From contig NZ_KB905158.1 in NCBI RefSeq assembly GCF_000378605.1, positions 62,001-126,000 on the forward strand: 64,000 bases of DNA. The letters are read 5' to 3'. The notes under the pieces were generated by a model. It was not told where the DNA came from and did no database searches. It saw only the letters and a list, made by a program, of their open reading frames with translations. Source of the DNA: Thioalkalivibrio sp. ALJ21 (GTDB lineage Bacteria > Pseudomonadota > Gammaproteobacteria > Ectothiorhodospirales > Ectothiorhodospiraceae). Position numbers and translations under genes: made by a program. Shown piece by piece: positions 13,483 through 55,645 of this stretch (its first letter is position 1; the number at the start of each line of letters is the position of its first letter).

Positions 13483-15909
13483 TTAAAGCAAGGAGCGGGC
13501 GGCGGCCAGCCTCTTCTTCCTAGCGCTTTCCACGCCCTGGATCCGCGTTCCTTGATCATTGGCCTGCCGAACCGCGATCGAGACATCAATGGGCGCCTCA
13601 GGGACTTCCACGGCATCCAGGTCCTTCCCAAATCGCTCACGCATCCTACTTTCGAGAGTCGTTACACGCGCCAGGCTCTTCACGGACTTGATTCTTTTCT
13701 CGAAGGCTTTCCCGTCACCAACGAGAACCACCCTCTCTTTCGCCCTTGTGATCGCCGTATAATCGAGGGCTCGGTCTGCAATGAGCCCATGACCATACGT
13801 GTTCGTGACCGGCATGATCACGGATTTGAACTCGGACCCTTGGCTCTTGTGGACGGTGATCGCGTAACCCAGAGAGATGTATCGCGCCTTTCCTTTCTCA
13901 ATCTGGACGGGCTCCCGGTCGTCACCCTCAAATTGGATGACCAGCCTCCCATCCTCACCGATCTCCAAGACTCGGCCGAATTCTCCATTCCGGACATCGA
14001 GATCGTAGTCATTCCTCGTCTGAATGACCCTGTCCCCTTCCACAATCATCAGCCCCCGGAATCCTTTCACCTTTTTCTTTCCGTCCAGCTCGCCGGATTG
14101 AGCAATGCGCTGCAGGGCCTTGTTCATTTCCAGCATGCCGAGAGGCCCGTTATTGGAGGGCGTCAGGACCTGGATGCCGTTCCCCACCTCGAGCCCCTCC
14201 CCCATCTGCATAGGGATGATCTCGTGCAGAATCTTGTCGCGAATCATGTTTGCCTCGGCGAGATCACCACCCTCACCTCCGCTGCACCACACCTGAGAAT
14301 AGGCACTCGAGTTCGCGATCTGAGGGACCTTTCCGGCATTGACCGCATGGGCCGCCTCGATGATCGGAGACCCTTCTCCTTGCCGGTGGATCTTGTCTAG
14401 GTGAACCCGCGGAACGCTGCCGGATTTCACGAGATCCAAGAGCATATTGCCCTGCCCCACCGACGGGAGTTGATCGGGGTCGCCTACCAATACGAGGCGC
14501 GCCTCCGGGCTGAGGTTGGCAACGATCCCCCTCATCAAATGGATATCGACCATCGACGTCTCGTCAATAACGAGAGTGGAAGCGTGGCAGATCGGGCTGT
14601 CTGGCTCCACATCGAACCCGGATCCCTTCCAGCCCAGGATTCTGTGAATGGTGGAAGCGGGGATCCCCGTGCTCTCACCCATCCTCGCAGCTGCCTTTCC
14701 AGTGGGCGCTAACAGAACAACCCCGCCATCGCCCTCTCTCTTCTTGATGGTGTTGATCACACCTTTCAGAACCGTCGTTTTTCCAACGCCCGGGCCGCCA
14801 GTCACGATGGATACGGAGGAGACCACGGAATTCTTGATTGCCTCCCGCTGGCGCGGGGCCAAAGAGAATCCTTCGGCTTCTTCGAACTTGCCGATGTCTT
14901 CATCAATCTCGGATGCAACTGCCGCGCTCTCGTATTCCGCGAACCGCTTCGGCCTTTCTTTCCCTAGCCTTGCTGCGATTCTTCCCGCAATCCGTTCCTC
15001 CGCTGCGTTCGACCGCGGGTCCATAAGGAGGTCCGTGCCCCCAATCCGGCGCTCGATGAGAGCCCCCAGCTCAATGCCGAAGTCGATACCCTCTTTTGCA
15101 GTCCCGTAGTCAACACCAAGAAACTCGGACGCCGCGCGCACAACATCGGTATAACGGGCCGCCGTGTGTTGCCCCCGCGCGGTGTGCTCCTCAACCAAAT
15201 GGAGCGCCCCCATGAACATCCGAACAACCGAATCTTTGGGGTGACCGAGGGCATGAGAGAGCCGATCAGCATCCAGGAAACCTGCCCTTTGCATCCCGCC
15301 GCACATAGCGTAGGGATTGTCAGCGAGAAGCTTGACGGCCGCCTTCCCGTGCCGCTTCTTGATCTCGATGGCTTTCCGCTCATCGAGCCCCATTTTCACA
15401 AGGTAGTCGGTTGTCCACATGTCCTCAGCGCGGTCAACCATCTTGCTCAACAAGGCCTTATCCGACTCAGAGAAATACACGAAGCGACGAAGCCCCCGGG
15501 AATCCCTCTTCACGAGAGGATCCCAGATCATTTCCATGGCGATGATGTCTTTTGCGGATTTCCGCTTGCCCTCAATAACGCGATGAGCGTCCCCCTCATC
15601 AGCCAGGCAGCACGTGACAAAAGCGAACCCTTGCTCGGTCGTCTTTGGGGTCCCAACCGTGATCTGAGTGGCCTCGATGCACCGGTCTCCCCGATTATCG
15701 ACACCGACTGATCCCGCGACCGCAATCCGCAGGTCTCGGACCGGGTTCATATGGAACCGGCCGGCAAGCTTGATCTCTCCTCGCTCCAAAGCGGGCCCGT
15801 CCCACGCATCCGGTCGGAACATCACCACCGAGAAAAGACTTTCTGGGCTCCGGAACCGGACCTGGGTAACCACCCCTGAGAACAGCTTGTCTGCGTCTTT
15901 CTCTGACAC
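13483..15909 (-). CDS. recD2: RecD2-type SF1 DNA helicase (copy 1)
   Basis: The 808-residue protein has an N-terminal beta domain and a helix-hairpin-helix region with LLADNPYAMC near 210-240, then the SF1B core. Motif I is GGPGVGKTTVLK near residue 370, motif II is LVIDETSMVD, motif III is VGDPDQLPSVGQG, and the C-terminal motifs include YAITVHKSQGSEF and ALDYTAITRAKERV. These features define RecD2, a 5'-3' helicase acting without RecBC. I chose GTG 15909 because AAGG lies seven bases upstream; the frame extends to GTG 15963 but that start has no ribosome binding site and sits about 10 bases from the predicted transcription start. A second, clearly different RecD2 lies at 58728-60935. Confidence 0.92.
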   Translation of the reverse strand: MSEKDADKLFSGVVTQVRFRSPESLFSVVMFRPDAWDGPALERGEIKLAGRFHMNPVRDLRIAVAGSVGVDNRGDRCIEATQITVGTPKTTEQGFAFVTCCLADEGDAHRVIEGKRKSAKDIIAMEMIWDPLVKRDSRGLRRFVYFSESDKALLSKMVDRAEDMWTTDYLVKMGLDERKAIEIKKRHGKAAVKLLADNPYAMCGGMQRAGFLDADRLSHALGHPKDSVVRMFMGALHLVEEHTARGQHTAARYTDVVRAASEFLGVDYGTAKEGIDFGIELGALIERRIGGTDLLMDPRSNAAEERIAGRIAARLGKERPKRFAEYESAAVASEIDEDIGKFEEAEGFSLAPRQREAIKNSVVSSVSIVTGGPGVGKTTVLKGVINTIKKREGDGGVVLLAPTGKAAARMGESTGIPASTIHRILGWKGSGFDVEPDSPICHASTLVIDETSMVDIHLMRGIVANLSPEARLVLVGDPDQLPSVGQGNMLLDLVKSGSVPRVHLDKIHRQGEGSPIIEAAHAVNAGKVPQIANSSAYSQVWCSGGEGGDLAEANMIRDKILHEIIPMQMGEGLEVGNGIQVLTPSNNGPLGMLEMNKALQRIAQSGELDGKKKVKGFRGLMIVEGDRVIQTRNDYDLDVRNGEFGRVLEIGEDGRLVIQFEGDDREPVQIEKGKARYISLGYAITVHKSQGSEFKSVIMPVTNTYGHGLIADRALDYTAITRAKERVVLVGDGKAFEKRIKSVKSLARVTTLESRMRERFGKDLDAVEVPEAPIDVSIAVRQANDQGTRIQGVESARKKRLAAARSLL

Positions 15910-15979
15910 CGTAAGGCCTTGAGCTGATGGGCGTATGAAACCTCGGAGGAGTCTACCCGGCACGCACCGAATAGTCCAT

Positions 15980-16073: not shown

Positions 16074-16484
16074 CTACCGGCCGCGCGGACGAAGCAAGCG
16101 CTGAGAAATTGCCGTCCGGACGATCTCAGAGATTACCCCCTCAACATACGGGTTGTCGCGACGGACTTCGGCAATCGCCTTCTCTAGCGCCTCGGCTCCA
16201 GCCGGGGACAGACTGAATTGCTTAGTCGACCCCCCCTCTGTTCCGAGGGCTGAATTCGGCGCAAAGAGGCAATCTTTCCAGTCCGGGTATTGCACGAGGT
16301 CGATCACGGCCTCATCTACCCAGCGCGAACGCCCTCTCTTTCCGTATTCTTCTTCGACCTGAGCATCCATCTCACGCAGGAGCCACGCCGGGATCACCAC
16401 GCGCACTGCGCGCCCCTGGGCCTGCCCCACGATTGGCTCCGCATTGATCTTCAGCGTCCTCGGTTTCTTATTTTGCTTCGTCAT
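16074..16484 (-). CDS. Small basic ribbon-helix-helix-like protein downstream of parB
   Basis: A 136-residue protein with a Lys-rich N-terminus and a stretch VRVVIPAWLLREMDAQVEEE followed by RGRSRWVDEAVIDLV. One short strand and two helices in this order, with a serine at the second helix cap, fit a ribbon-helix-helix DNA-binding domain. The gene overlaps the 3' end of parB by 17 bases, so it is made with the partition proteins. It could be a transcriptional regulator of the operon or a third partition factor. The C-terminal part (LSPAGAEALEKAIAEVRRD) is helical with no known motif. ATG 16484 is preferred to TTG 16496. Confidence 0.65.
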   Translation of the reverse strand: MTKQNKKPRTLKINAEPIVGQAQGRAVRVVIPAWLLREMDAQVEEEYGKRGRSRWVDEAVIDLVQYPDWKDCLFAPNSALGTEGGSTKQFSLSPAGAEALEKAIAEVRRDNPYVEGVISEIVRTAISQRLLRPRGR

Positions 16485-17583
16485 CTTGGTCTTCAATCGC
16501 CTCGATCAATTTTTTCCATGCTTTTCGAATCTCGGCTGGATCCGCGCCATCCAGAGCAGACGGCTCGATGCCGATCTCAATCCCCGCAAATGCTTCTGAC
16601 TCAAGGAGGGTCCGGAGAATGAAGGTCGCCTTCTTCGCTGGCACCGAGCCCAGGCTCGTCTTTTCGGTCCGTTTCGGGCCTGGCTTCTTTTCCTGCTGCG
16701 CCGCGGCACCGGCATCACCCGACTCTCCTTGGCTCTCCAGCTGAGCGATCTTCTCCAGGGCATCCCTCTCGCTGGTGGCCGCAACTGCCGAGTCGAGCAT
16801 TTGCCGAAACTGAGCTCCGGGAAAAGCCTCGTGTGCAGAGGCAAGGCGTTCCAGGACCTTCTTCGACGAGATACGGCCTTCCCTCAGCTCCCCCATGACC
16901 TCTTCTGGAAGTGAGGCGAGGCGCAGAACCTGAAACCCTCGATATCGGGAAAGCCCCAAGGTCTTGGCAATCTCAGGCCCCGTAACACGTTCGCCGCCCT
17001 TCTCTCGGGACATGGTGTCCACGAGATCCCTCTGAGCGATCACCTGCTCGTAAAGGCTCAGGTCGACACGATGCACGTTCTCCACGTACTGCATCAGCCG
17101 GATCTTTGTAACCGGCGGGGGGTCAGGAAACACGTTCGCCGGAATCGTCGGGGCCCCAGCCATCAGCGACGCGAGATATCGACGTTCACCGGCAATCAGC
17201 GAATAACGATTCCCTCGGGCGTAAACCCGGATGCTCTGCACCACACCAACCGCCAAGATCGAAAGTGCGGTCTCTCGAAGGTCATCGAGGTCCTGGATCG
17301 CTCGGTCGTTCAGACTGACGCCGTCGTTGACCAGATCGCGAGCATCCAAGCGCGAAAGAACCTCAGCAAAGGACTCCTCCCCTTCTGCAAGCGATGCCAG
17401 ATCACGCCGGATATCTCCCGGCTCGATCTCGAGCTGACGGTGATTGTTCGGATCAATGTCGACCAGGTCGACGCTTAGTTCGTCGTGATATGCCTGACCC
17501 GAGGCATCCGACATGACCTCCTGAAACGCCTTCTTCAGAGGATCGTTGATGCCTAGGCGCTTTTTCTGCCCTAGCTTAGCCAT
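16468..17583 (-). CDS. parB: ParB-type partition protein
   Basis: The 371-residue protein has the ParB/Spo0J N-terminal nuclease-like (CTPase) domain: VGVVQSIRVYARGNRYSLIA, then the conserved box AGERRYLAS near residue 130 and ENVHRVDLSLYEQ near 170. A helix-turn-helix follows (ITGPEIAKTLGL-type: VTGPEIAKTLGLSRYRGFQ) at about 200-225. The C-terminal region is charged (AAAQQEKKPGPKRTEKT) before a helical end. ParB binds centromere (parS) sites, slides as a CTP clamp and stimulates ParA. Its start overlaps the end of parA by eight bases. The ten palindromes at 20358-22470 are its most obvious candidate sites. Confidence 0.95.
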   Translation of the reverse strand: MAKLGQKKRLGINDPLKKAFQEVMSDASGQAYHDELSVDLVDIDPNNHRQLEIEPGDIRRDLASLAEGEESFAEVLSRLDARDLVNDGVSLNDRAIQDLDDLRETALSILAVGVVQSIRVYARGNRYSLIAGERRYLASLMAGAPTIPANVFPDPPPVTKIRLMQYVENVHRVDLSLYEQVIAQRDLVDTMSREKGGERVTGPEIAKTLGLSRYRGFQVLRLASLPEEVMGELREGRISSKKVLERLASAHEAFPGAQFRQMLDSAVAATSERDALEKIAQLESQGESGDAGAAAQQEKKPGPKRTEKTSLGSVPAKKATFILRTLLESEAFAGIEIGIEPSALDGADPAEIRKAWKKLIEAIEDQDDEAK

Positions 17584-18484
17584 TGGCGTTCATTCTCCTC
17601 CAGATCTCGTCGCAGGCCGCCTGCGCTTCAACCCTTGCCGGATCGTTCTGCGAGAGCTGGAATACTGAGTCCGGGCGATCTTCTTTTGCGTTCACCGCAT
17701 CAAACGCCGTTCGCAATCCAACGCTGTGAGGCAGAACATACTCACTGAGAACCGATCCCTCCCCCATCAGAGAAGCAATCATCTGCTTGGTCTGGCGGGT
17801 GTTTTTTCGCACCATGTTGGGAAGGATTCCGACGAGGTTGAGAGGCGTGTCATCGCCGCCCCGCCGGTGCTTTTCGTCCTTGTAGAAGCGGAGCATGCCA
17901 TAGACGCCTTCCATCGAGACCTGGTCGAGCTTGGTCGGGATTACGAGATCCGTCGAGGCTCTCAGAACCGAGCGGGTGACCGGGCTCTTTGCCGGCGGCG
18001 TATCAATGACCACGATGTCGTAGATATCGGCAATATCCTCCGTCCAGAGGAACTCGCGCATGCGAGCGAGGATCCGGAGCTCGACCTCTTCTCGGCGGAC
18101 CAGCTCGATAGTCCGGAGCTTGCTACCCCACCCCGGGAGAACATGGATGCCGTGATAAGGCGTCTCGTACGGGGTAACGCCGTAGGTCATGTCCATGTAC
18201 AGGTCGGCCGAACATGACCTACCGTTCCAGCCGGCCATCTCGGGATCGTTTGGGTCGAACTCTTCAGAAACCGGTGGCTTGTAGGATCCGTCCGAGTCAG
18301 ATTCCGCTTCCATCTCGAGGTAGCGAAGGGAGTACGAGCATTGCGCGTCAACGTCGATGCCCAGGACACTCTTGCCATGGACGATGGCGAAATACTCGGA
18401 GATGGCTTTCGCCATACTGGTTTTCCCAACGCCGCCTTTGTTGTTGACGACGGAGATGACTCTCAGCCCACCCGGTGCCTTCAT
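17576..18484 (-). CDS. parA: ParA-type partition ATPase
   Basis: A 302-residue ATPase with the deviant Walker A motif NNKGGVGKTSMAKA at residues 13-26, the A' region VLGIDVDAQCSYSLRYL near 40-57, and Walker B-type IYDIVVIDTPPAKSPVT near 150-165. There is no long N-terminal DNA-binding domain, so this is closer to short (type Ib/chromosomal-like) ParAs than to P1 ParA; without that domain autoregulation must come from another protein such as ParB or the RHH protein. AGGGG lies six bases before ATG. The promoter region contains a palindrome and a half-site of the array repeat. Confidence 0.95.
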   Translation of the reverse strand: MKAPGGLRVISVVNNKGGVGKTSMAKAISEYFAIVHGKSVLGIDVDAQCSYSLRYLEMEAESDSDGSYKPPVSEEFDPNDPEMAGWNGRSCSADLYMDMTYGVTPYETPYHGIHVLPGWGSKLRTIELVRREEVELRILARMREFLWTEDIADIYDIVVIDTPPAKSPVTRSVLRASTDLVIPTKLDQVSMEGVYGMLRFYKDEKHRRGGDDTPLNLVGILPNMVRKNTRQTKQMIASLMGEGSVLSEYVLPHSVGLRTAFDAVNAKEDRPDSVFQLSQNDPARVEAQAACDEIWRRMNANG

Positions 18485-18600: not shown

Positions 18601-18723
18601 GACCTTTTGCGGGGAAACAGCGCCGTCAAAACAGGCATTTGCGACGGATTCGTTGGTTTCTGTAAGGGAAAAAGACCATCCTGCAATCAAGAAATTGCGG
18701 GGATAATCGGACGGAGAGTGACT

Positions 18724-20046
18724 GTGGGGAATACTGGACCTGTCAGCGGGAAATCCGGCAAAGGCTGGGAAATCAGCAGTATAGACTCGCACGAGAGACT
18801 TACCGCTCGGCCTCTTCGGAAGCACGTCGCGCTCGTTCACAGCAATGCCGAGAGCCTATCTCTGGCAAAGCGCAAACTGACGAACCTCTTCCTTCAGGAG
18901 GCCTCGCTGTCCAGAAGGAACGGTCAGGGTCGCACGGAAGAAGGCTACTTTCGGACTCACACCAAAGACATTGCGGCTGTGATGGGGGTCACATCCCGGA
19001 ACATCACCTGGCTGAAGAACCAGCTGCGTGGTCTGCAGGATGTCGCGCTGGAGCTGAATCTGCTCCACGACGATGTTCCCGAGCTCGACGATAACAGTGA
19101 CAAGGACACCGAAAGCGCAGAAGCGAAGGCTGACAAGGGCACCGCGCTATGGGAGCGCTGCATTCTGTTCCCGTCGGTTCGGATCGAGCGAAATGGGGAG
19201 GTCCTGTTCAGGGTGAACCCCGATATCGAAGACCTGGTCTTGAAGCCGAGCGTTTACGCTTACATCAACCTCCAGGAGATGCTCGCTCTTAAGAGAAAGC
19301 ACGGGCAGCAGCTTTACGAGGTCCTGTGTCGATTCATTGGAACCGGGAGCACCGGTTGGGTCGACTACTCGGATTGGCTGCGTTTGTTCGCTGGGCCGAA
19401 GAAGACATCGGCACCATGGAGCTGGTTCGAGAAAGACATCCTGATTCCAGCCCTTGAGGATGTCGCTGAGCACACCGGCTTCAAGGTTCGCGTTGAGCTC
19501 AATCAACGCGGCAGGAAAGTCACATCCGTGCGCTTTCTGTTTTCCCATAAGAATTCCGGCCGCGACGCTCTTGCGGAGATCGATCCCTCTGCTCTGAGGG
19601 CCCTGAAGCGTGCCGGGCTTGGGGACTCTGATGCTCGATCGGTAGCCCAGTGCGGATCAACACAGGCCGTCATCAAGGCAACAGAAGATTTCATGGCTCT
19701 AAACGCGGCTGGAAAGATTCGCTACGCGGCGAAATGGTTACGCACGCGGGTCCAAAATCTTGACAAGGCCCCCTCCCCTTCCGGTTCTCTCGCCCCTCCC
19801 CAGGATGCACCGGGCCGCAGCACCGGCTCCGTCGGCCAGGGATCCGAACAAGATGCCGAGGACCACGTCGACTTGGAGGCGCTCCCCGAACAGCAGGTCA
19901 AGGATCTGTGGGCGAGATTCGAATCGAGTGCGTCCGGGATGACCAAGATTCATCTCGAGTCAGGAGGGGCTGACCATCCAATCATCAAAGAAGAGTTTCG
20001 CCTTTTCGTTGGGACCGTGCTGAGGCGGCAGCGCGAGGCAAAGTAG
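18724..20046 (+). CDS. Plasmid replication initiator, Rep_3-like
   Basis: The 440-residue protein has two winged-helix-like halves. The first begins RKHVALVHSNAESLSLAKRK and contains DIAAVMGVTSRNITWLKNQL. The second is introduced by VYAYINLQEMLALKRKHGQQ, LYEVLCRF and WLRLFAGP, ending EDVAEHTGFKVRVE. This arrangement is that of iteron-binding initiators of the Rep_3 superfamily. The C-terminal 120 residues are a Pro-rich linker and a helical tail. The start is uncertain: GGAGAG precedes GTG 18724, whereas the frame extends to TTG 18607 without a ribosome binding site. It diverges from parA. Rep presumably binds the iterons at 23020-23101, more than 3 kb away, which is unusual. Confidence 0.82.
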   Translation: MGNTGPVSGKSGKGWEISSIDSHERLTARPLRKHVALVHSNAESLSLAKRKLTNLFLQEASLSRRNGQGRTEEGYFRTHTKDIAAVMGVTSRNITWLKNQLRGLQDVALELNLLHDDVPELDDNSDKDTESAEAKADKGTALWERCILFPSVRIERNGEVLFRVNPDIEDLVLKPSVYAYINLQEMLALKRKHGQQLYEVLCRFIGTGSTGWVDYSDWLRLFAGPKKTSAPWSWFEKDILIPALEDVAEHTGFKVRVELNQRGRKVTSVRFLFSHKNSGRDALAEIDPSALRALKRAGLGDSDARSVAQCGSTQAVIKATEDFMALNAAGKIRYAAKWLRTRVQNLDKAPSPSGSLAPPQDAPGRSTGSVGQGSEQDAEDHVDLEALPEQQVKDLWARFESSASGMTKIHLESGGADHPIIKEEFRLFVGTVLRRQREAK

Positions 20047-20357
20047 GACCTGGGGTTCTGGAATTTGCCCAGGAACCACAGTCTCTAGAGGCGGCCTCAG
20101 GCGCCCTCTGTGGGGCGATACCCGCAAAGATAGGCCAGCGCCCATCCTTGGTTGCGAACGGCCAGCATGCGCGATCCTGTGAGGTCGATTTTTCACGTCA
20201 TTATAGCCTATGTCTATTCGCCGTCTATGTTCTATAGGCCGTTAGCTATCGAAAGGCTTCTGTCGCGGCGCGAAACTTCTGCCCCTGGCCTCAATGGGCC
20301 CGGGCTTCTGTGGGCGCAACACCACCCCAAACAAGAAGGCACGCCGCGACGTATTTG

Positions 20358-22470
20358 GGTTAGCGCGCGCTAACCGATCGCTCCTGCACTGCCGGGACCG
20401 TCACCGAATCGCCAGACTGGCGGCGCTTGACCGCGGTGACGGGCTGACGCGCCAGGACTCCATGCGCCCCACCCTTCCCCTCTGCGTTAGGTCCGGTATG
20501 AGCCTATGCAGGCCGGTTCGTGCCCATTATGCGGGGTACACCAACCCCCGGGTTCCCACCCAAATGGCCCATCCTGGGCGACTGATGGGCTTCGTCGGCC
20601 GCCTCTTGGGGCTATCTTGCGGACGAACTATTGGTTGCAGCGACAAGGTCACGGACGCAGTTGACCTGGAATCTTTGTGGCGCCCCACCCCCTTTCGGAC
20701 AGTCACTGCTAGGGTTAGCGCGCGCTAACTCTCCCGCCCACGGCCGATCAATTACCGATCAAGATGCCGACTCCCACGCGCAATCCTCGCTTCCACGCGT
20801 GTCCGATCGCCGGGAATTTGCCCGGCTTCATCGTCCGCCTACCCTGGTTAGCGCGCGCTAACCCCACCCCGGATACGAAGCGTATGGCGTGCACCCCTAA
20901 GGGTCTGTCTGCCCCACCGAGTTAAGCGTTTGGGCCGGGTGGATGAGAATGCGCAGGTACAAGATCCGCCCTATTGGCCGGGCCGTCATCTGCCCGCGAT
21001 AACCTACCGCCTCGACTCACCGCATTTCGAGAAGACCTCTCCTTGAAAGGATCTGATCGTGAACTCCCGGCTTGTTAGTGGTTTCGTTTACGCACGGTTA
21101 GCGCGCGCTAACCACCCGGACTTTTCGGTAACGGAAGGCTTCGTCTTGCCCGGCTAGGGGTTGCCGCGAGGTCGATTGGGCGATATGCAACGCAAGCCGA
21201 AAAAGGCTTAAATGCCGGCTCATCGGAATCAAGATTTGTAGAGCAATCATCCGCTCCAGGCCCGCAATGCGTTGGCGTTCAAATGGCGCGCCATGGAGGC
21301 ATGATTGACCTCCTTATAAATCCCAAATTTCGAGCGCCATAAGTGATTGAAAATAGACGCCCGTTTGCCCCCCCCTTATAAATCCCAATTTCAGGCGACG
21401 CATGAAGCCTTCGAAGGCCGGGTCAACAGGCCTCGGTTGAGGGTTAGCGCGCGCTAACACCCATGCGGGCATTTGGTTGTTGCGTCACGCTCCTTGTGCT
21501 TCCCCTCATGGATCGCCGCGCATGATGAGCACGGCGAGACACTCTCGAATAACAGCAATCACTGACGAAAGAATGCTGGACACCGAGTGGAATCCGAAAG
21601 AGGGTTAGCGCGCGCTAACCGTTCGGACAAGGTATTCAGTGGTTCCGTCCGCAGCAGAAGACGAGCTCTCGATGTGCTCCGAGCGTGAGATCACAGTGGA
21701 GGCCTGGTTAGCGCGCGCTAACCAAGATCACCTCGTTCTGGCCGGAAAGACCCATAAACTGAAAGAGGGGCGCGAGGCCAAAAATCAGGGCAGGGCGACA
21801 AAAGAGCTGCGGCTCTTTGCACACACTGCATAACCGAAAGACGAGGGTGCGGGCGCGTGAACAGATTCACTGGTCAGGATATTCGGCTTGTCCATGCCAC
21901 ACCGAACGTCAACTGACAGCAGGTTGGACGCTCGAAGGCGATCTGAGATCGCGCAGTCATCCCTGGGACAGCGCTCCGGTTAGCGCGCGCTAACCGCGAG
22001 AAGGGTGGGGCGATCACAGGAAACCACATCGCAACGACCCGCGGATCTCGCAGCTTGTCGCGTCATCTATCGAGTGGCTCAGCCGTGGCGAATAAACATA
22101 GTGAGCTCTGGCCTGACCGAATCATCCGGCCGTCAGAATCATTCGGACCAGCGCCAGTGACGCAAGAGGGTTAGCGCGCGCTAACCCTGTATCAACGCGA
22201 TCCAAGATCTAATTCTGAACCCGCTGAAACCCACGCGCCTGGAGCTGGAATTGGGACCTGTAGATCGTGCCAAGGCCTTCTCATTTCAAGAACGCTGGCC
22301 AGAAACGTCGGCGCGGAAGGGCTATGCGCTTTCAAATCAAATAGTTAAAGGCCTTAGATCTGCAGCAAGGGCCAATTGACAACGCCACGCAAACAAACAT
22401 GTCGAGCGATTCCCGCTTCATCCCCCTTGGCTCATGCAGAAGGGGAGGGGGGGGTTAGCGCGCGCTAACC
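20358..22470. repeat. Array of ten dispersed 18-bp palindromes, candidate centromere (parS)
   Basis: The sequence GGTTAGCGCGCGCTAACC, a perfect 18-bp inverted repeat, occurs at 20358, 20846, 21096, 21603, 21706, 21978, 22169 and 22453. Two more copies at 20713 and 21442 keep the 16-bp core GTTAGCGCGCGCTAAC but differ at the last base. Start-to-start spacing is irregular, from 103 to 355 bases. The sequence between copies is not repeated. The half-site TTAGC/GCTAA is shared with the RK2 operators of KorB (a ParB relative) and KorA, and this window encodes both a ParB and a KorA-like protein. The likeliest reading is a multi-site centromere; operators for a regulator or sites for an organising protein are alternatives. 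Confidence 0.9.
21313..21391 (+). repeat. Duplicated AT-rich element
   Basis: CTTATAAATCCCAAATTTC (21313-21331) recurs as CTTATAAATCCCAATTTC at 21375-21392, with one A fewer. The two copies are about 62 bases apart and lie between palindromes 4 and 5. They could be protein-binding sites or the remnant of a duplication. Confidence 0.6.
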
Positions 22471-22880
22471 TTGAATCGGAAGGAAAGTCGGGAGCGCAGC
22501 CCGGTACGCCAAATTCATATCGGGACTCGTGTGCTCCCTATGCGGAAGAATCAGACTTCCGCTGTCCGACCCCACGACAGGCAGGATAGGCTCCAGGGTC
22601 TGCAGATAATAGAAGTGGTAGGGCAGGGCGAACCTATCGCTTAGCAGGGCTGGTTTTTGATTCGCCGTTTTCGACACAGGCGAAGGGTGCTTGCGAAGGG
22701 TCGATAGGACGCCACAAACAAGGGCGGCTGAAAGCGTCTGTGTTTGTGGAAGCACGAACGGCTGGCGTAGCCGGCCCCTCCTTCTTGGTCAGCCAAGGTT
22801 TTGCGGGTGATACCGTTTGTGCAGTGTCGCTCTCCGCTCGTTGGGACACTGAAACCAGGTCGATACAGCCGGATCCCCGG

Positions 22881-22899
22881 AAAGCCCAGCGGGCTTTTT
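22881..22899 (+). terminator. Terminator-like hairpin upstream of the origin
   Basis: AAAGCCC (22881-22887) pairs with GGGCTTT (22891-22897) around a three-base loop, followed by TT. No gene ends upstream on this strand. It may insulate the origin from transcription or end a small RNA made inside the array region. Confidence 0.5.
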
Positions 22900-22924
22900 G
22901 GAGCTCCGGTTAGGGGTATTCTTT

Positions 22925-23120
22925 TAGGTTCCTTTTTTCTTTTTTTTTATCCTCCCGCGGCGCAAGTCCGCAAGTCATTGTATTCACGTATTAAAAAGGA
23001 CAATTTGAGGGCGCTCTGCGTAACCGCTATCCCGTGCCGTGTAACCGCTATCCCGTGCTTGGCGTAACCGCTATCCCGTGTGCTGTAACTGCTATCCCGT
23101 GCGTGCTCCGTAATTCCGTG
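22925..23120. other. Candidate replication origin (oriV)
   Basis: An AT-rich tract with runs of T (about 22925-22960) and TATTCACGTATTAAAAAGG (22981-22999) is followed directly by four direct repeats and then, 97 bases on, by a replisome-organiser gene and dnaB. An AT-rich unwinding region beside iterons is the usual architecture of an iteron-controlled origin. I do not see a clear DnaA box. Confidence 0.7.
23020..23120 (+). repeat. Iterons: four 17-bp direct repeats
   Basis: GTAACCGCTATCCCGTG occurs at 23020-23036, 23041-23057 and 23064-23080, and with one change (GTAACT...) at 23085-23101. Start-to-start distances are 21, 23 and 21 bases, close to two helical turns. A shortened version, GTAATTCCGTG, follows at 23110-23120. 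This spacing and identity are typical of Rep-binding iterons. Confidence 0.88.
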
Positions 23121-23217
23121 AGGCCGCACGGATCGCTCCTAGCAGTCTTCACTCCATTGCCAAGAACGGTTTGCGTATGTAGTATTGCAATATCACGACA
23201 CGGAACGATCTCTACCG

Positions 23218-24081
23218 ATGGCAAGACAGCGGACTGTAAGCCCGGACATTTGGGGTGATGACGCCTTTCTCGAGCTCTCTTATGCGGCTCGGCTGGTCTA
23301 CCTGGCTATGCGAAATTTTGCCGATGACGGCGGCGTTCTCCCGGCTAACGCAAAAACCGTGGTCTCAAAGGCTCTGCCTGGTGACGCGGAAGCGCTCCTT
23401 GCTGCTGACGGCCTCATTGGAGAGCTTGTCTCACGGGGGTTCCTGATCGAATGGACAGCAAATGACGGGAAGGTCTATTGGGCTGACGCGCATTGGTCGA
23501 GCCAATACGTCCATCGCCCAACCTATCGTTACCCGTCCCCTCCGAAAAGGGGCGAGTCTTACGACCTCGTGGGAACGTTCGGTGATGGCGAGCCCGTGCC
23601 GCAGATTTATATCCCCCTCCGTACTGGAGATGACTGGCTCGTTCCGGCGGAGGACATCCTCGCGTGGGTTGACCTATATCGCGACATCGACGTGCTGGAA
23701 ACCCTCCGAAAGGCCCGCGAGTGGAACCTAGCCAATCCGAAAAAGCGAAAAACTCCCGAGGGTATTCGTCGGCATCTGATCTACTTCCTCAACACCGCAA
23801 ACGGCGGCGCCGGCCCGAAACCCCAAGATGCTGCGCCATCCCCCAATGCTGCGCGACCGAGTCGGCCCCCTGCTCACAGCCCGAGGCCGAACCCTCAAGC
23901 CGAGCTCCTAAACCAGGCCCCTGCCGGCGATGCTCTTGTTGAATCCCCTGTGGCGCCCGACGTCGACTTCGCAGCTATGCGCAAGCATCTCCGTGGCGGT
24001 CGATTCGCGGGCCAGGGGCTTGGCGGGACAGATGATCAGCAACCCAATAAGCCCGCGGGCGCTCAGCGGGGTTCGAAATGA
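23218..24081 (+). CDS. Replisome organiser/DnaT-like replication protein
   Basis: The 287-residue protein starts MARQRTVSPDIWGDDAFLEL followed by SYAARLVYLAMRNFADDGG, an N-terminal pattern common in phage and plasmid replication proteins that act before DnaB loading. Residues 20-140 look like a winged-helix domain. A Pro-rich linker near 210-240 leads to a short C-terminal tail. The stop overlaps the dnaB start (ATGA), so the two proteins are made together, and the iterons lie directly upstream. A role in recruiting or loading the DnaB helicase at this origin follows from that context. ATG 23218 is preferred to an upstream TTG at 23185; no strong ribosome binding site precedes either. Confidence 0.72.
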   Translation: MARQRTVSPDIWGDDAFLELSYAARLVYLAMRNFADDGGVLPANAKTVVSKALPGDAEALLAADGLIGELVSRGFLIEWTANDGKVYWADAHWSSQYVHRPTYRYPSPPKRGESYDLVGTFGDGEPVPQIYIPLRTGDDWLVPAEDILAWVDLYRDIDVLETLRKAREWNLANPKKRKTPEGIRRHLIYFLNTANGGAGPKPQDAAPSPNAARPSRPPAHSPRPNPQAELLNQAPAGDALVESPVAPDVDFAAMRKHLRGGRFAGQGLGGTDDQQPNKPAGAQRGSK

Positions 24082-25547
24082 GCGGTTCCGCTTTTGATGC
24101 GCTGCAAAAGCAAGCCGTCCGCGTCGAGTCCGACGGTGCGGCTGGAATGGCTGCGTCAGTAGCCCAGCTTGCGTCATTGGAGCAGGGCGGCTCGCCGACT
24201 GAGGCCACCAGCGACAAAACGATGATGTTTGAGCGCGAGGTCCTCGCTTGCTGCATGAAGGACTCTAGCGTTATCGGTGAGGTGGTCCAGGAGGGTCTTC
24301 GTGAGACAGATTTTTCTGTCGACACGCATCGCAGGGTGTTCTCTGTGCTCATCTCTCTCGATGCTAGCGGCACCCCGATTGACCCGGTAACGGTGACCGG
24401 GGCCCTCGAGCGCGAATCACCAAAAAGCTGGTCCAGCCTTGTCGCCGACATTGCCACCAACTCCCTGGCCAGCGTGAAGAATGTTTCGCACTACGCGACA
24501 ACGATCCGCGACCAGGGTCGCCGGCGCCAGGCGATCGAGATGATTGGGGGGCTTACATCCAGGATCGCGACGGATGGAATCGCGTCTATCGACTCCGTCA
24601 TCCAGGATTTGATGTCCTTAACCATCAATGAGGCGACAGCTTCTCTCTCTCTGCGCGACGCTCTGTCTCAAAGCGTCGGCTATTTGGAAGACGTCATGGA
24701 TCTTGATGGTGAGCTTCCTGGCGTGCCTACGGGCCTCGAGGGCTTAGATGAGGCGACGGGCGGATGGCGCGACTCCGACTTCATTGTTATTGGCGCTCGA
24801 CCAGCGATGGGCAAGACGGCGTTCCTGCTCAATTCCGCGATGGGAGCCGCCACCAGGGCAGGCAAGCGGGGCCCGGCGCATGCGGGAATTATCAGCACAG
24901 AGCAGCCGGCCTCTCAGCTCGGGCTCCGTTGCATTTCGATCCGGGGTCGCCTGAGTGCGACACATCTTCGGCAGCCTCTTAAGATGACGAACGAGGACTG
25001 GTCCAAAGTAACGTATGCGATCCAGGAGATGTCTAGCTATCCCGTTTGGATCAATGAGTCCTCTAGCTTAACCATTGACGATATCTTTCGCCAAGCTCGC
25101 CACTGGAAACATCATAATAAGCTAGATATACTTTTTGTGGACTATATTCAGCGCATCAAGCCGGATAACGAAAGAGCAAATCGTTCGGAGCAAGTTGCGC
25201 AGATCGCTTCAGGACTGAAGAGCATCGCTAAGAATCTTAAGATCCCCGTTGTCGCCCTTTCTCAGGTTCGCCGAGAGGTCGAGGACCGGCCGAACAAGCG
25301 CCCAATGATGGCTGACTTTAAGGAGTCTTCCGCGATTGAGCAGGAGGCCGATCTTATGTTCACCCTGTATCGAGACGAGGTCTATAACGAAGAGACGCTC
25401 GATAAGGGGATTGCGGAGATCGCGGCTTGCAAGAATCGCCACGGCGAAGTCGGAGTCCCGATCAGGGCTAGGTGGGAAGGGAAATACCTGACTTTCCGCG
25501 ATTACGACCCGGCAGAGGGCGTTTACGAGAATTTGAACAGGCATTGA
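24078..25547 (+). CDS. dnaB: Replicative DNA helicase DnaB
   Basis: The 489-residue protein has the DnaB N-terminal domain (EREVLACCMKDSSVIGEVVQ; DTHRRVFSVLISL) and a RecA-like C-terminal domain. The latter contains GLEGLDEATGGWRDSDFIVI, Walker A GARPAMGKTAF near residue 237, the Glu-containing motif IISTEQPASQLGLR, Walker B DILFVDYIQRI near 350, the H3-like LSQVRREVEDRPNKRP and DFKESSAIEQEADLMFTLYR. It unwinds DNA 5'-3' at the plasmid fork. The residue order 'STEQPASQLGLR' replaces the usual SLEM-type motif. The gene ends 58 bases before the conjugation operon. Confidence 0.95.
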   Translation: MSGSAFDALQKQAVRVESDGAAGMAASVAQLASLEQGGSPTEATSDKTMMFEREVLACCMKDSSVIGEVVQEGLRETDFSVDTHRRVFSVLISLDASGTPIDPVTVTGALERESPKSWSSLVADIATNSLASVKNVSHYATTIRDQGRRRQAIEMIGGLTSRIATDGIASIDSVIQDLMSLTINEATASLSLRDALSQSVGYLEDVMDLDGELPGVPTGLEGLDEATGGWRDSDFIVIGARPAMGKTAFLLNSAMGAATRAGKRGPAHAGIISTEQPASQLGLRCISIRGRLSATHLRQPLKMTNEDWSKVTYAIQEMSSYPVWINESSSLTIDDIFRQARHWKHHNKLDILFVDYIQRIKPDNERANRSEQVAQIASGLKSIAKNLKIPVVALSQVRREVEDRPNKRPMMADFKESSAIEQEADLMFTLYRDEVYNEETLDKGIAEIAACKNRHGEVGVPIRARWEGKYLTFRDYDPAEGVYENLNRH

Positions 25548-25605: not shown

Positions 25606-26376
25606 ATGTTTGGCAAGAAGAAGGATGAAGGCGGTTCAAAGGTCGCCACAGAGGGCGCTGCCGCAACGGAGGGGCAGGGCGTGGGCGGTTCCGGCCCTGG
25701 CAAGGGTGCGGCAGAAACGAAGCCGGGACCGCAGCGCCGGGCGCGCAAGCAGCCGGACGACTCTGCGTTTGCGTCTGCGATTAAGAGCATCCTTTTCCGT
25801 GATTCATTCCGGGTCGCCGTTCGTGTCCTGACCGTCTCGATGGTCGTGAATGTGGTCCTGGCGCTTGGGATCATCTATGTGGGTTCTCAGGATGAGCCGG
25901 CCCCTCGTTATTTCGCCACTAACCCCGATGGCACGCTGACTGAAATGACGCCCCTTTCGCGTCCAAACCTAACGGACACGACGTTGCGTAACTGGGCTGG
26001 TATGTGCGTCACAGAGGCCTGGACCATGGGTTTCCATGATCTTGATCGCCGGATCACCCAGGCCTCGGATAAGTGCTTCACTGAGTCTGGTGCCACCGCA
26101 TACCGAAATGCGCTCATCCGGAGTGAAACGGTATCCCGTATCCAGTCGGACGAGATCGTGATGAACACGACCCTCAATGGCAGCCCGATTATCGTTGACA
26201 AGGGTGAGTCCCAGGGTCGCCTGGCGTGGCAGATCCGGGTGCCGGTTGTGGAAACGATCCGTGGCGCCGACATCCGAACCCGTACGCGTGAGCGCACGAT
26301 CGTCATCCTTGCTGTTCGCTCACCGACTCTTGAGCACCCGCATGGCGTCGCAATCAATCAGTTCATCTTCGAATAA
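25606..26376 (+). CDS. traM: Type IVB conjugation protein TraM (DotI/IcmL)
   Basis: A 256-residue inner-membrane protein with a low-complexity cytoplasmic N-terminus, one transmembrane helix (VSMVVNVVLALGIIYVG, about residues 83-100) and a periplasmic VirB8-like domain. The segment YFATNPDGTLTEMTPLSRPN after the helix and WAGMCVTEAWTMGFHD are characteristic of DotI/IcmL. The C-terminal domain ends WQIRVPVVETIRG and a beta hairpin. GGGGG lies before ATG. It opens the operon traM-traN-traO-traP-traQ-traR-traT-traU, the same order as in R64. Confidence 0.88.
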   Translation: MFGKKKDEGGSKVATEGAAATEGQGVGGSGPGKGAAETKPGPQRRARKQPDDSAFASAIKSILFRDSFRVAVRVLTVSMVVNVVLALGIIYVGSQDEPAPRYFATNPDGTLTEMTPLSRPNLTDTTLRNWAGMCVTEAWTMGFHDLDRRITQASDKCFTESGATAYRNALIRSETVSRIQSDEIVMNTTLNGSPIIVDKGESQGRLAWQIRVPVVETIRGADIRTRTRERTIVILAVRSPTLEHPHGVAINQFIFE

Positions 26377-26390
26377 GTCCAGGAACTCTA

Positions 26391-27383
26391 ATGACCAAAC
26401 CGAATCGACTGGAGCCTTTGCGGTTCGCGATCCTCGCCGCCGTCCTTGGGCTGGGGGTGTCCGGCGGCGCGATCGCCGAGGAACAAGGCTCGACCCTGAA
26501 GGCGGCCCCGGGCTCAATGGATCCCGTAGACCCGGACGTTCTGGATGCGATGCGCCCGCCGCCCTTGCCCGTGCCGGCATTCCAGGGGGCCGCCTCTGGT
26601 GTGCTCGATTTGACGCCTGACGAGATTCGGGTTTTTCGGAGCCTGGTGGAGCAGGTCCAGCGTGCGAGCTCGTCTGAGATTCGGCCAGTGAAGCCGAAAA
26701 TCTCGACGACCCGTATTGATACGGATCCTTCGGCGCCGCCGCCCGAGCTCTACCTTAGGGTTGGGTATGACACGTCGGTAGCGTTCCTGGATGCCGCTGG
26801 AAACCCGTGGCCTGTGCGCCCGGTATCTATCGGGGATTCGGAGGCCTACTCGGTTCAGCAAGCCGATGAAAACGTGATCGTGCTACACGCTACGTCAGCG
26901 TTCCGCCCGTCAAACTTCACGGTCATGCTAGAAGGTCGATCCAGCCCCTTGATGATTCACCTAGTCAATGGTGAGGAGACGGTCGACTATCTTCGAACTA
27001 TGACGATGCCGGAGCTCACTCCAGGTGCAATGCGGGAGCGTCTTAAGGCCGGCCAGCCCACGGACGTGCCAACCATCAATGACCCCTCGCTCACATCCTT
27101 CCTCGATGGCGTGCCGCCAAGTGACGCGCAGGTGATCCCCGTCCTCGATGCTCAAGTGCAAGCATGGAAGTATCGTAACAGGATGGTTGTGCGCACGAGA
27201 TTGGATCTGCTCTCTCACGCGGACTCGATCCTTCATGGCCGCGATGGGTGGAGGGTGTACGAGCTGAAAGACATCCTTCCCTCTCTCGTGATGTCCCAAG
27301 GGGGGCAAAGCCGAACGGTTCAGTTTGTCCTCGATGACATTGATTTTGATGACTATGTCGACCGCAGAAGGAGCGCCCGATAA
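26391..27383 (+). CDS. traN: Outer-membrane core protein TraN (DotH/IcmK)
   Basis: The 330-residue protein has a signal peptide (FAILAAVLGLGVSGGAIAEE), an N-terminal region with TPDEIRVFRSLVEQVQ, and the VirB9-like domain YLRVGYDTSVAFLDAAGNPW, IGDSEAYSVQ and FTVMLEGRSSPLMIHLV. These are hallmarks of DotH/IcmK, which with DotC and DotD forms the outer-membrane ring around DotG. It starts 14 bases after traM, and its stop overlaps the traO start (TAATG). Confidence 0.9.
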   Translation: MTKPNRLEPLRFAILAAVLGLGVSGGAIAEEQGSTLKAAPGSMDPVDPDVLDAMRPPPLPVPAFQGAASGVLDLTPDEIRVFRSLVEQVQRASSSEIRPVKPKISTTRIDTDPSAPPPELYLRVGYDTSVAFLDAAGNPWPVRPVSIGDSEAYSVQQADENVIVLHATSAFRPSNFTVMLEGRSSPLMIHLVNGEETVDYLRTMTMPELTPGAMRERLKAGQPTDVPTINDPSLTSFLDGVPPSDAQVIPVLDAQVQAWKYRNRMVVRTRLDLLSHADSILHGRDGWRVYELKDILPSLVMSQGGQSRTVQFVLDDIDFDDYVDRRRSAR

Positions 27384-28567
27384 TGAGTAAGTTCACTCAA
27401 AGCTATAAGCGCCTCAGTGGTCGCCGGAAGGCCAATTTTTGGGGCGTAATGGCGGTATTCGGGGTGGTCGTAATTGTCACGCTGAACTACGTTTTTTCGG
27501 GGTCGGGTGGCGAAGAAGAGAACCCGCATGCTGATCGAGGTGACGGCCGAGCCGTAGTGTCCGCGCCTCCGGTTTCGCGGGAGAGGGGAGCGGGTGAGCG
27601 CCCCCCTGGATACGACGAGTTCCGGCAGGAGGCTGACAATCAAGCGCGTGACGAAGCTCGAAGCTCTGGAGACTCGTTTATGCCGCGGCAGCGCCTGGAA
27701 TTTGGGCGCGCCGATGTTGGGGAGGTGATCCCGGTCCGTGAGGAGCCAGAACCGGAGCCCGAGCCCGAGCCCGAGCCGGAGCGCGAACCGGAACCCGAGC
27801 CGGTCCAAGTAAGCGAGGAGCGCTTCAACGTGGCGATGAGCGCAATGTCCCGCCTCGCTGAACGAGAAACCTCCCGCGGGGAAGAGGTGGAGATTCTGTC
27901 CTCCCCTTGGGAGCGCGAGCATGACGATGGCGCGGGCCGCGATGATGACGCGGACAATGGCGGCGATACATGGCCGCCCGAGCGCCCTGAGCGTCGACAT
28001 GTGCTACCTGGCGACCTGTTTGTTGGCGTTCTGGATACCGGTATCAACTCGGACACGCCATCGCCGATTAGGGTCTACATCACTGACGGCCCGCTTAAGG
28101 GTGCCCGACTAATGGGTGGATTCGAACTCGTCGGCGAACGCGTTGTAGCCCGGATTAACACGATCACGTTCGAGGACTGGACGGCGTCGGTCAACGCCGT
28201 TCTCGTCGACGCCGACCTGAAAAAGACGAGTCTTCAAGCTGACATCAATCGCCACATCATCTCTCGCTACGGCAGCCTTTTCCTGGCTGGGTTCGCATCA
28301 GGAGCCCGGGATGTCATGTTGTCTGATGGCCGTCAAACGACCGTCGTTGATGGTGCGGTTATTTCCGAGGGCCGGGAAGCCCAAACGCGTGATTACGTCA
28401 TCGGCGGCCTTGGCCGGGTAGGGGACGTCCTGATCGATAACCTTGCGCAGAACTTCAATCGCCCGCCCACCATTCGCGTCCCTGAGGGCGAGATGGTCGG
28501 GATCATGTTCGCGAATGAGTTTGAGGCCGACTGGCTTCCGGACATGCGCAACCAACCGGACTACTAA
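27383..28567 (+). CDS. traO: Channel core protein TraO (DotG/IcmE), VirB10-like
   Basis: The 394-residue protein has a transmembrane helix at about 18-40 (FWGVMAVFGVVVIVTLNYVF), a Pro/Glu repeat (EPEPEPEPEP, about residues 120-143) spanning the periplasm, and the VirB10-like C-terminal domain starting GDLFVGVLDTGINSDTPSPI. Further matches are GPLKGARLMGGFELVGERVV, NAVLVDADLKKTSLQADINR and the antenna-like end VPEGEMVGIMFANEFEADW. It is far shorter than Legionella DotG because the pentapeptide-like repeat region is absent, as in plasmid TraO. It links inner and outer membrane parts of the channel. Confidence 0.92.
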   Translation: MSKFTQSYKRLSGRRKANFWGVMAVFGVVVIVTLNYVFSGSGGEEENPHADRGDGRAVVSAPPVSRERGAGERPPGYDEFRQEADNQARDEARSSGDSFMPRQRLEFGRADVGEVIPVREEPEPEPEPEPEPEREPEPEPVQVSEERFNVAMSAMSRLAERETSRGEEVEILSSPWEREHDDGAGRDDDADNGGDTWPPERPERRHVLPGDLFVGVLDTGINSDTPSPIRVYITDGPLKGARLMGGFELVGERVVARINTITFEDWTASVNAVLVDADLKKTSLQADINRHIISRYGSLFLAGFASGARDVMLSDGRQTTVVDGAVISEGREAQTRDYVIGGLGRVGDVLIDNLAQNFNRPPTIRVPEGEMVGIMFANEFEADWLPDMRNQPDY

Positions 28568-40213: not shown

Positions 40214-40696
40214 TTGCCTGTTCGGGTGACGCTTAAGCAAGCCATGAAAAATGGCTGGATATCGGACGAGGACAAGCCCTCCAAAACGGGGGCTGATCGC
40301 TCACTCAAGCGGGGCCTGAAAAGTGACTTGGCGTCTCCGCTGCTGAGTCATGAGCCGCAGGCCATCCTGTGGAGGTGCATGGCGGGCAGGTGGCCGGATC
40401 TCGTAGGGAAGGGGCTCTTGGTTTGGGAGGCGGAAGGCCTCATTGAGGGGCGCAAGTTCCGGGTGGATATCGCGCTTCAGGCGCCCCGAATAAATCTCGC
40501 GATCGAACTCGATGGCTGGCAGTTCCACGGGAAGCACAAGGCGGGGTTTCATCGTGACCGCATGAAATCCCGACTTCTGGTCCTGAACGGCTGGACCCCT
40601 TTTCCCTTTGCGGCGAAGGAAATTTTGAAGGACCCCGAAGGCTCCGTTGACCTCATTGAGCAGGCGGGCTGGGGAAGCGTAAGGAAGAGAAGATGA
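40214..40696 (+). CDS. DUF559/Vsr-like PD-(D/E)XK nuclease
   Basis: A 160-residue protein. The stretch GRKFRVDIALQAPRINLAIE followed by LDGWQFHGKHKAGFHRDRMK and LVLNGWTPFPF matches the small Vsr/DUF559 endonuclease fold, with Asp in FRVDIAL and Glu-Leu-Asp in AIELDG as catalytic acids. GGAGG lies five bases before TTG 40214; GTG 40226 is an alternative, and the long N-terminal extension of the frame overlaps the AT-rich promoter. It overlaps recJ by four bases (ATGA), so nuclease and exonuclease are produced together, suggesting a repair or defence role. Confidence 0.75.
   Translation: MPVRVTLKQAMKNGWISDEDKPSKTGADRSLKRGLKSDLASPLLSHEPQAILWRCMAGRWPDLVGKGLLVWEAEGLIEGRKFRVDIALQAPRINLAIELDGWQFHGKHKAGFHRDRMKSRLLVLNGWTPFPFAAKEILKDPEGSVDLIEQAGWGSVRKRR

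Positions 40697-53641: not shown

Positions 53642-55645
<2,004 letters not shown>

What the first reader, a model, noticed from the sequence alone, without database searches (positions are those of the whole stretch)
20358..22470. Ten copies of an 18-bp GC-cored palindrome spread over 2.1 kb: a candidate new type of centromere
GGTTAGCGCGCGCTAACC occurs ten times (eight exact, two differing at the last base) at irregular 103-355-base spacing in a region with no genes, next to parABS-type genes and the origin. The TTAGC/GCTAA arms are those of RK2 KorB (a ParB relative) and KorA operators, and the window encodes a ParB and a KorA-like protein. The central GCGCGC is not part of the known operators. 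Irregular spacing differs from iterons and CRISPRs and fits ParB loading sites, whose spreading does not need phasing.
Basis: partly seen in the sequence, partly recalled or inferred. Interest (0 to 1): 0.85.

Follow-up and report, generated by a model that had tools for sequence, protein, structure and literature searches.

The report
Ten-site plasmid centromere with own ParB
A large bacterial plasmid carries ten identical short mirror-image DNA sites beside its segregation genes, most likely the landing sites of its segregation protein; relatives carry the same genes with differently spelled sites, and protein and site appear to change together.

Summary
Ten copies of GTTAGCGCGCGCTAAC lie at 20359-22469 (eight extend to the 18-mer) in a 3.1-kb stretch without detectable genes. 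The genome holds no other copy at 2 mismatches or fewer, its 289,720-bp contig none at 3.

Best reading: an array of parS sites loaded by the window's own CTPase-type ParB (16468-17583), in a conserved cassette of Rep, ParA, ParB and a small tandem ribbon-helix-helix protein (Orf3).

The main evidence comes from relatives. A same-genus contig has a related cassette and six copies of a different palindrome, all within 4 kb of it. Other relatives carry 3, 6 or 8 copies of further palindromes. In 35 of 51 distinct cassettes a palindrome sits at the end of orf3 (3.7% of control stretches). Across 36 cassettes the site varies with the ParB DNA-binding domain: residue 242 D/E/K goes with base -3 G/A/C in 35 of 36, with one more exception outside that set.

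It is not a new type of centromere: replicon-specific palindromic parS sites are known, and high copy numbers too. The Orf3 cassette was not found in my literature searches. That the window's ParB binds these sites is inferred.

The parts
20358..20375 (.). parS-like site 1, GGTTAGCGCGCGCTAACC
20713..20730 (.). parS-like site 2 (last base T)
20846..20863 (.). parS-like site 3
21096..21113 (.). parS-like site 4
21442..21459 (.). parS-like site 5 (last base A)
21603..21620 (.). parS-like site 6
21706..21723 (.). parS-like site 7
21978..21995 (.). parS-like site 8
22169..22186 (.). parS-like site 9
22453..22470 (.). parS-like site 10
20047..23184 (.). stretch without detectable genes that holds the array
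   Evidence: codon log-odds negative in every bin wholly inside; no Pfam match to its ORF of 144 aa
16468..17583 (-). ParB, 371 aa, CTPase-type with helix-turn-helix domain
   Evidence: PF02195 E 1.2e-9; TIGR00180 above cut-off; solved ParB, Spo0J, Noc and KorB chains E 8e-14 to 4.5e-5; model
17576..18484 (-). ParA-type ATPase, 302 aa, KGGVGKT motif close to the N terminus, so no N-terminal DNA-binding extension
   Evidence: PF13614 E 1.2e-21; sequence
16074..16496 (-). Orf3, tandem ribbon-helix-helix protein, third gene of the par operon
   Evidence: a ParB frame lies beside orf3 in 55 of 55 loci with an orf3; model E-H-H-E-H-H, mean pLDDT 86.3
18607..20046 (+). Rep (Rep_3 family initiator), divergent from parA
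   Evidence: PF01051 E 2.2e-14, PF21205 E 5.4e-8
23020..23103 (+). about four 21-22-bp iteron-like repeats, candidate origin

Best explanation
The ten palindromes are the centromere (parS array) of a plasmid-type ParABS system whose operon begins 1.9 kb away. A dimer of the window's ParB places one helix-turn-helix domain on each half of GTTAGCGC|GCGCTAAC, closes on CTP, slides off into the neighbouring DNA, and builds a partition complex that the ParA ATPase moves. Ten loading sites in DNA without genes would raise loading and leave sliding unhindered by transcription. Shown here: the sites, the genes, the absence of the site elsewhere on the replicon, plasmid-specific palindromes next to related cassettes, and variation of the palindrome with ParB DNA-binding residues in relatives. 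Inferred: that this ParB binds this site, the CTP-driven sliding, and the gain from ten copies.
For: (1) The sites are confined to one place, 0.3-2.4 kb downstream of rep. (2) ParB has the CTPase motifs GERR and ENVHR-DL and aligns with Caulobacter ParB through the DNA-binding domain; its R213 aligns with the residue I take as R173 there (the number follows from the letters and the 28-residue distance to G201 given in PMC7383237). (3) A same-genus 240,256-bp contig has a related parA-parB-orf3 cassette (ParB 20-24% identical) and GTGCGC-NN-GCGCAC six times, all six at 130614-134535. (4) Further cassettes have 8 (L122), 6 (L111) or 3 (L074) copies of other palindromes; in 20 shuffles of each of these loci the largest family was 2. 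(5) 35 of 51 distinct cassettes have an odd palindrome with at least 6 consecutive inner pairs within -30..+45 of the end of orf3, against 174 of 4735 control stretches (3.7%); by the looser measure of 7 of 8 pairs 37 of 51, against 4.9-5.9%. (6) Over 36 cassettes, site distance follows ParB given Orf3 (0.39), not Orf3 given ParB (-0.19). The two strongest windows are ParB 269-280 and 242-253, in the DNA-binding domain (family-wise p 0.002). (7) Residue 242 vs base -3: D-G 18, E-A 14, K-C 3, K-A 1 of 36, with 5 changes on the ParB tree. Residue 242 is next to the position aligned with Caulobacter 201, a known specificity residue (PMC7383237, passages). (8) A second parA-parB pair on the same-genus contig, where the Orf3 profile finds no second Orf3, has its own palindrome four times starting 10 bp after the parB stop. 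(9) The only near-canonical parS of the genome (1 mismatch) is on C2, 12 kb from the chromosomal ParB, not on C4.
Against: No binding was measured. The window and its same-genus relative use even-centred GC-rich palindromes and have none at the end of orf3, unlike most relatives, so the ParB-site rule reaches them only by extrapolation. K242 with C at -3 fits three of four K cases, but even and odd centres do not align exactly, and the same-genus relative has R at 242. 16 of 51 cassettes fail the stricter orf3-end test and 14 the looser one; of the 37 that pass the looser one, the best palindromes of L113, L114, L117, L119 and L162 are not of the common spellings. L041, L077, L145 and L149 reach only 5-6 of 8 pairs there. 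No repeated palindrome was found in most single-site loci, so arrays are the exception. Windows outside the DNA-binding domain (32-46, 131-145) also reach family-wise p 0.002-0.008, so shared descent is only partly removed. Outside the 36, L123 breaks the rule (D with A; partial ParB), while L113/L114, L161, L163 and L171 keep it.
Confidence: 0.86

Rival explanations
1. The palindromes are bound by Orf3, the tandem ribbon-helix-helix protein, as in partition systems whose centromere protein is of that fold; ParB binds elsewhere.
For: A ParB frame lies beside orf3 in 55 of 55 loci, Orf3 has a predicted DNA-binding fold, and one Orf3 window follows the site (0.35, p 0.014).
Against: Given ParB, Orf3 divergence does not explain the site (-0.19). 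The one Orf3 window is its last residues, whose codons overlap the site in the cassettes with the site at -18. A second parB without a detected orf3 on the same-genus contig has its own palindromes.
Confidence: 0.07
2. The array is a set of operators for a plasmid-wide repressor (KorA-like protein at 56208-56456, or the Rep protein), controlling genes or replication.
For: A KORA-domain protein is encoded on the contig and plasmid repressors often use palindromes (recalled); the array lies between rep and an iteron-like repeat.
Against: No copy lies at any other place on C4 at up to 3 mismatches, so there is no regulon; ten copies over 2.1 kb without genes do not suit operators; no KorA- or KorB-type operator in the window at up to 2 mismatches; Rep_3 proteins usually bind direct iterons (recalled).
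Confidence: 0.04
3. The palindromes are transcription terminators or another RNA-level feature.
For: In relatives a single palindrome often lies at the end of the operon.
Against: The window's ten sites have no centre loop and no T run next to them; the terminator scan lists none of them. Arrays also lie upstream of parA (L122) and in tandem (L111).
Confidence: 0.02
4. Chance or assembly artefact.
For: None found.
Against: Largest count in 100 shuffles is 1 against 10; the bases next to the ten copies differ, so it is no collapsed tandem repeat.
Confidence: 0.01

Closest known systems
ParABS1/ParABS2 of the Streptomyces linear plasmid SCP1 (PMC13245405, passages read)
   Same: Plasmid CTPase-type HTH ParBs with distinct 13- and 19-bp inverted repeats, three identical copies around each parAB operon, found by ChIP-seq.
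   Different: Three copies each, not ten; no third gene mentioned in the passages read; another phylum.
Bsr partition systems of Burkholderiales (PMC5450999, passages read)
   Same: 16-bp replicon-specific palindromes with a central CG; each ParB is selective for its own site. Bsr sites have a T-rich 5' end, here GTT.
   Different: The Bsr six-base core holds one A and one T; here it is CGCGCG. The window's par operon has Orf3 and is linked to a Rep_3 gene.
repABC parS, for example pAMI4 3parS (PMC9040568, passages read)
   Same: parS palindromes downstream of the replication gene, several per replicon, in pAMI4 in a long non-coding locus.
   Different: Consensus GTTNNNNGCNNNNAAC has centre GC, here CG; two to four copies downstream of repC there; Rep_3 here, not RepC.
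RK2 KorB and its OB sites (recalled; KorB structures 8qa8/8qa9 match ParB)
   Same: ParB-family protein on palindromic sites present in many copies per plasmid.
   Different: OB is 13 bp, odd-centred, dispersed at promoters and also operator (recalled); none in this window at up to 2 mismatches.
parCAB of Myxococcus pMF1 (PMC3235114, passages read)
   Same: Three-gene par operon with an accessory protein.
   Different: Type Ib ParB on iterons; the accessory gene comes first there and does not itself bind the DNA tested. No comparison of its ParC with Orf3 was made.

Membership tests
ParABS with CTPase-type HTH ParB | ParB N-terminal CTP-binding domain with GERR and EN-R motifs | tested here: met
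   these residues invariant or at least 90% conserved in the 30-row alignment
ParABS with CTPase-type HTH ParB | Helix-turn-helix DNA-binding domain alignable with solved ParB-parS complexes | tested here: met
   (6s6h and 4umk among matches)
ParABS with CTPase-type HTH ParB | ParA ATPase gene next to parB | tested here: met
ParABS with CTPase-type HTH ParB | Palindromic sites of 13-19 bp close to parAB | tested here: met
ParABS with CTPase-type HTH ParB | ParB binds the site | tested here: inconclusive
   only by covariation in relatives; no binding data
ParABS with CTPase-type HTH ParB | CTP-dependent sliding and stabilisation of the plasmid | not testable with these tools
   -
Bsr partition systems | 16-bp palindrome with central CG | tested here: met
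   GTTAGCGCGCGCTAAC, 10 of 10; definition
Bsr partition systems | Six-base core of 2 C, 2 G, 1 A, 1 T | tested here: not met
   core is CGCGCG; definition
repABC replicons | parS consensus GTTNNNNGCNNNNAAC | tested here: not met
   centre is CG; definition
repABC replicons | RepC initiator in one operon with the partition genes | tested here: not met
   the initiator beside the par genes is Rep_3 and divergent; definition
RK2 KorB/OB | Operator TTTAGCSGCTAAA (recalled) | tested here: not met
   0 matches in the window at up to 2 mismatches

The most novel reading that the evidence does not exclude
The Rep / ParA-ParB-Orf3 cassette is an undescribed branch of ParABS in which the tandem ribbon-helix-helix protein is a second DNA-binding partner at the centromere. 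It may act as a ParB loader or repressor, or tie partition to conjugative transfer (its closest structural matches, weak ones, are chains of the F relaxosome). Its ParB family follows a readable site code at residue 242 (D, E and K for G, A and C at base -3), so that new, mutually compatible plasmid centromeres arise by few changes.
Probability: 0.3. Interest if true: 0.72.

Novelty: new variant of a known kind. Interest (0 to 1): 0.5.

Why it matters
Plasmids that share a cell need centromeres that do not cross-react. Here is one ParB family with many natural site spellings next to their own parB, and a candidate residue that changes with the site, so the evolution of centromere specificity can be tested directly. 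The ten-site array is a natural case for asking what many loading sites buy over one, since relatives have one, three, six or eight.

Tried and rejected
Kinship with RK2 KorA/KorB operators: rejected. Search for the same palindrome elsewhere: 1 of 192 genomes, the own one; a 41-base query in the plasmid collection at max E 10 gave 3 partial matches; viral contigs 1 single site; genome contigs 31 stretches, one site each, two of them on one Dactylosporangium contig. Arrays in the first Legionella and Aquicella plasmids: none of 14 or 16 bp with two palindrome methods; the later arm-based method found one (L074). A first covariation run used two wrong sites (L160, L162, AT-rich chance palindromes); it was replaced. 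A notebook entry put base 6 of the published half-site at -3; it is at -2 (corrected). Helical phasing: not clear. Taxon of the host: not determined (no 16S match in the own genome). Third-gene par operons of this kind in print: not seen in four searches (listings, plus passages of PMC13245405 and PMC3235114); absence from this open library is not absence from print. Not examined: five Orf3 matches for which no locus was returned.

Full report
Observation. One search finds ten copies of GGTTAGCGCGCGCTAACC at 20358-22470, eight exact and two with another last base; 100 shuffles give at most 1. The inner 16-mer is identical in all ten. In the whole genome (5 contigs, 2,964,639 bp) there is no other copy at 2 mismatches or fewer, and on the window's contig (C4, 289,720 bp) none at 3. 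The array lies in 20047-23184; every 300-bp bin wholly inside has a negative best-frame codon log-odds (-0.06 to -0.24), while most bins of the flanking genes are positive. Its 144-aa ORF has no Pfam match. The bases next to the ten copies differ.

Neighbourhood. On the minus strand lie parA (17576-18484), parB (16468-17583) and orf3 (16074-16496); divergent from parA is rep, a Rep_3 initiator (18607-20046), and the array follows rep. About four 21-22-bp iteron-like repeats follow the array (23020-23103), then a gene with matches to replication initiation families of phages (23185-24081) and a DnaB-type helicase. ParB carries GERR and ENVHR-DL motifs and matches solved ParB, Spo0J, Noc and KorB chains. 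Its model (mean pLDDT 83.9, 30 sequences) has the same families as best matches (E 9.6e-9 downward, TM normalised by the target 0.38-0.73 in the first 29 rows). Orf3 is predicted as strand-helix-helix twice, mean pLDDT 86.3. Its best structural matches are chains of the F relaxosome, at weak E-values (0.036, TM 0.53/0.65; none at 0.001 or below); that these chains are TraY is recalled.

Relatives: the cassette. ParB relatives in my alignments are 19-29% identical to the window's. Orf3 relatives were found in 2 of 47 genomes of the family, 13 of 369 of the class, 28 of 36 of the order of G197, 5 of 10 of the order of G275 and 3 of 3 of the order of G234; these sets overlap. Among 55 loci with an orf3, all 55 have a ParB frame beside it, some cut by a contig end. 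In the loci fetched with flanks, parA stands before parB except in L123, which is cut, and rep is often near.

Relatives: the sites. In the same-genus genome G029, contig C2 (240,256 bp) has a related cassette and GTGCGC-NN-GCGCAC six times, all six between 130614 and 134535, one inside parB and the others downstream of orf3. A second parA-parB pair on that contig, where the Orf3 profile finds no second Orf3, has TTTCGCGSSCGCGAAA four times starting 10 bp after the parB stop, and one more copy far away at 155356. L122 (G365) has TGTCCAG-N3-CTGGACA eight times at irregular 112-197-bp spacing upstream of parA; L111 (G275) has ACTCAAG-N3-CTTGAGT in six copies at 35 bp after orf3 (five exact, one with a changed first base); L074 (an L. 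longbeachae plasmid) has AGTTAAG-N3-CTTAACT three times between orf3 and rep. In 20 shuffles of each of these loci the largest repeated family was 2. No array of three or more was found in the other par loci given, apart from the second locus on G029 (L082) and a second, unrelated repeat in L111. Many cassettes instead have one palindrome at a fixed place, the end of orf3: 35 of 51 distinct cassettes have at least 6 consecutive inner pairs within -30..+45, against 174 of 4735 control stretches (3.7%); by 7 of 8 pairs it is 37 of 51, against 4.9% or 5.9%. L039 was left out of the 51 because its record ends there. The commonest spellings are TTCGGTSACCGAA, TTAAGTSACTTAA and TTTCCCWGGGAAA. The window, G029 and L122 lack the orf3-end site and have arrays instead.

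Which protein reads the site. For 36 cassettes with an assigned odd-centred site and a ParB frame of more than 300 aa, site distance was compared with protein distance. Left out are the window and G029 (even-centred), cassettes without an assigned site, those with a partial ParB, and near copies. Four of the 36 sites (L117, L118, L157, L169) are imperfect (6 of 8 pairs) and were assigned by their common spelling; those of L122, L039 and L172 are not at the orf3 end itself. ParB given Orf3: 0.39. Orf3 given ParB: -0.19. The best 12-residue windows are ParB 269-280, 242-253 and 266-277, in the DNA-binding domain (0.54, 0.50, 0.48; family-wise p 0.002 with 500 permutations). Windows at 32-46 and 131-145 also pass, so shared descent is not fully removed. 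One Orf3 window passes (0.35, p 0.014): its C-terminal end, whose codons overlap the site in the cassettes with the site at -18. Column by column, residue 242 against base -3 gives D-G 18, E-A 14, K-C 3, K-A 1. The highest single value belongs to residue 273 against base -2 (0.92), which only sets the few CC-type sites apart; residue 242 against -3 is next (0.91), and the best Orf3 column reaches 0.74. On the ParB tree without column 242 the four pairs need 5 changes (least possible 3; well-supported branches alone force 2 each for D-G and E-A), and residue and base keep in step; long branches (L122, L120, L115, L039) make parts of that tree unsure. Outside the 36, L113/L114, L161, L163 and L171 fit and L123 (D with A, partial ParB) does not. 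Residue 242 aligns one residue after the Caulobacter glycine that I take as G201, and R213 with R173 (alignment). These are two of four residues shown to switch specificity between parS and NBS; 173 was tied to base 1 and 201 to base 6 of the half-site (PMC7383237, passages read), which in a 14-bp even site I count as -7 and -2. In my set residue 213 varies with base -7 (0.69). That the window has K242 and C at -3 agrees with three of four K cases but is a weak point, because its site is even-centred.

How it most likely works. ParB dimers load at the ten palindromes, close on CTP and spread; ParA moves the complex. The chromosomal system is separate: the one near-canonical parS (1 mismatch) lies on C2 at 637647, 12 kb from a ParB match at 649241, and none lies on C4. 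Steps shown: sites, genes, confinement, family pattern, covariation. Steps inferred: binding in this plasmid, CTP switch, benefit of ten sites, role of Orf3.

Comparison with what is known. Replicon-specific palindromic parS sites are known in Burkholderiales (16 bp, central CG; PMC5450999), in repABC replicons (PMC9040568: two to four repeats up to 4 kb downstream of repC, and a non-coding locus called 3parS) and on SCP1 (PMC13245405: three identical copies around each of two operons). High site numbers are known from F sopC and RK2 (recalled). So the array is a further parS array, not a new type of centromere. What I did not find in print is the Orf3 cassette (with the limits of that library). 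For the residue-242 pattern I made no separate search.

Verdict. Observation confirmed; interpretation right in kind, overstated in novelty. The interest lies in the family: one ParB lineage with many natural site spellings and an associated tandem ribbon-helix-helix protein of unknown role.

Noticed in passing
window 51088-53577 (-) and 53642-55645 (-): The contig carries genes matching both subunits of a type II topoisomerase of the DNA gyrase kind, besides its own DnaB-type helicase (24078-25547), RecD2-like helicase (13483-15963) and RecJ-like protein (40693-42474): an unusually complete replication set for a plasmid.
   Followed up: no
window 3260-4354 and 25606-28567: DotM, DotI/IcmL, DotH/IcmK and TrbI-like genes: a type IVB secretion or conjugation system on the same contig.
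   Followed up: no
window 23020-23103: Iteron-like repeats TAACCGCTATCCCGTG; 80-90 bases of this stretch match a Pantoea agglomerans and a Plautia stali symbiont plasmid at 81-82%. A second candidate initiator gene follows (23185-24081), so the replicon may have two initiators.
   Followed up: partly
G029:C2 234096-235508 (L081, L082): A second parA-parB pair on the same-genus contig, with TTTCGCGSSCGCGAAA four times in 210 bp just downstream: two partition systems with two site spellings on one replicon, as on SCP1.
   Followed up: partly
L111 9233 and 9071-9372; L119 9651: Sites close to the canonical chromosomal parS (ATGTTCCACGTGTAACAT, ATGTTTCACGTGCAACAT) and a TGTCCG-N6-CGGACA repeat lie within 1 kb of some Orf3 cassettes.
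   Followed up: no
window 27742-27803: A 12-bp GGAGCCCGAGCC tandem repeat inside the TrbI-like gene.
   Followed up: no
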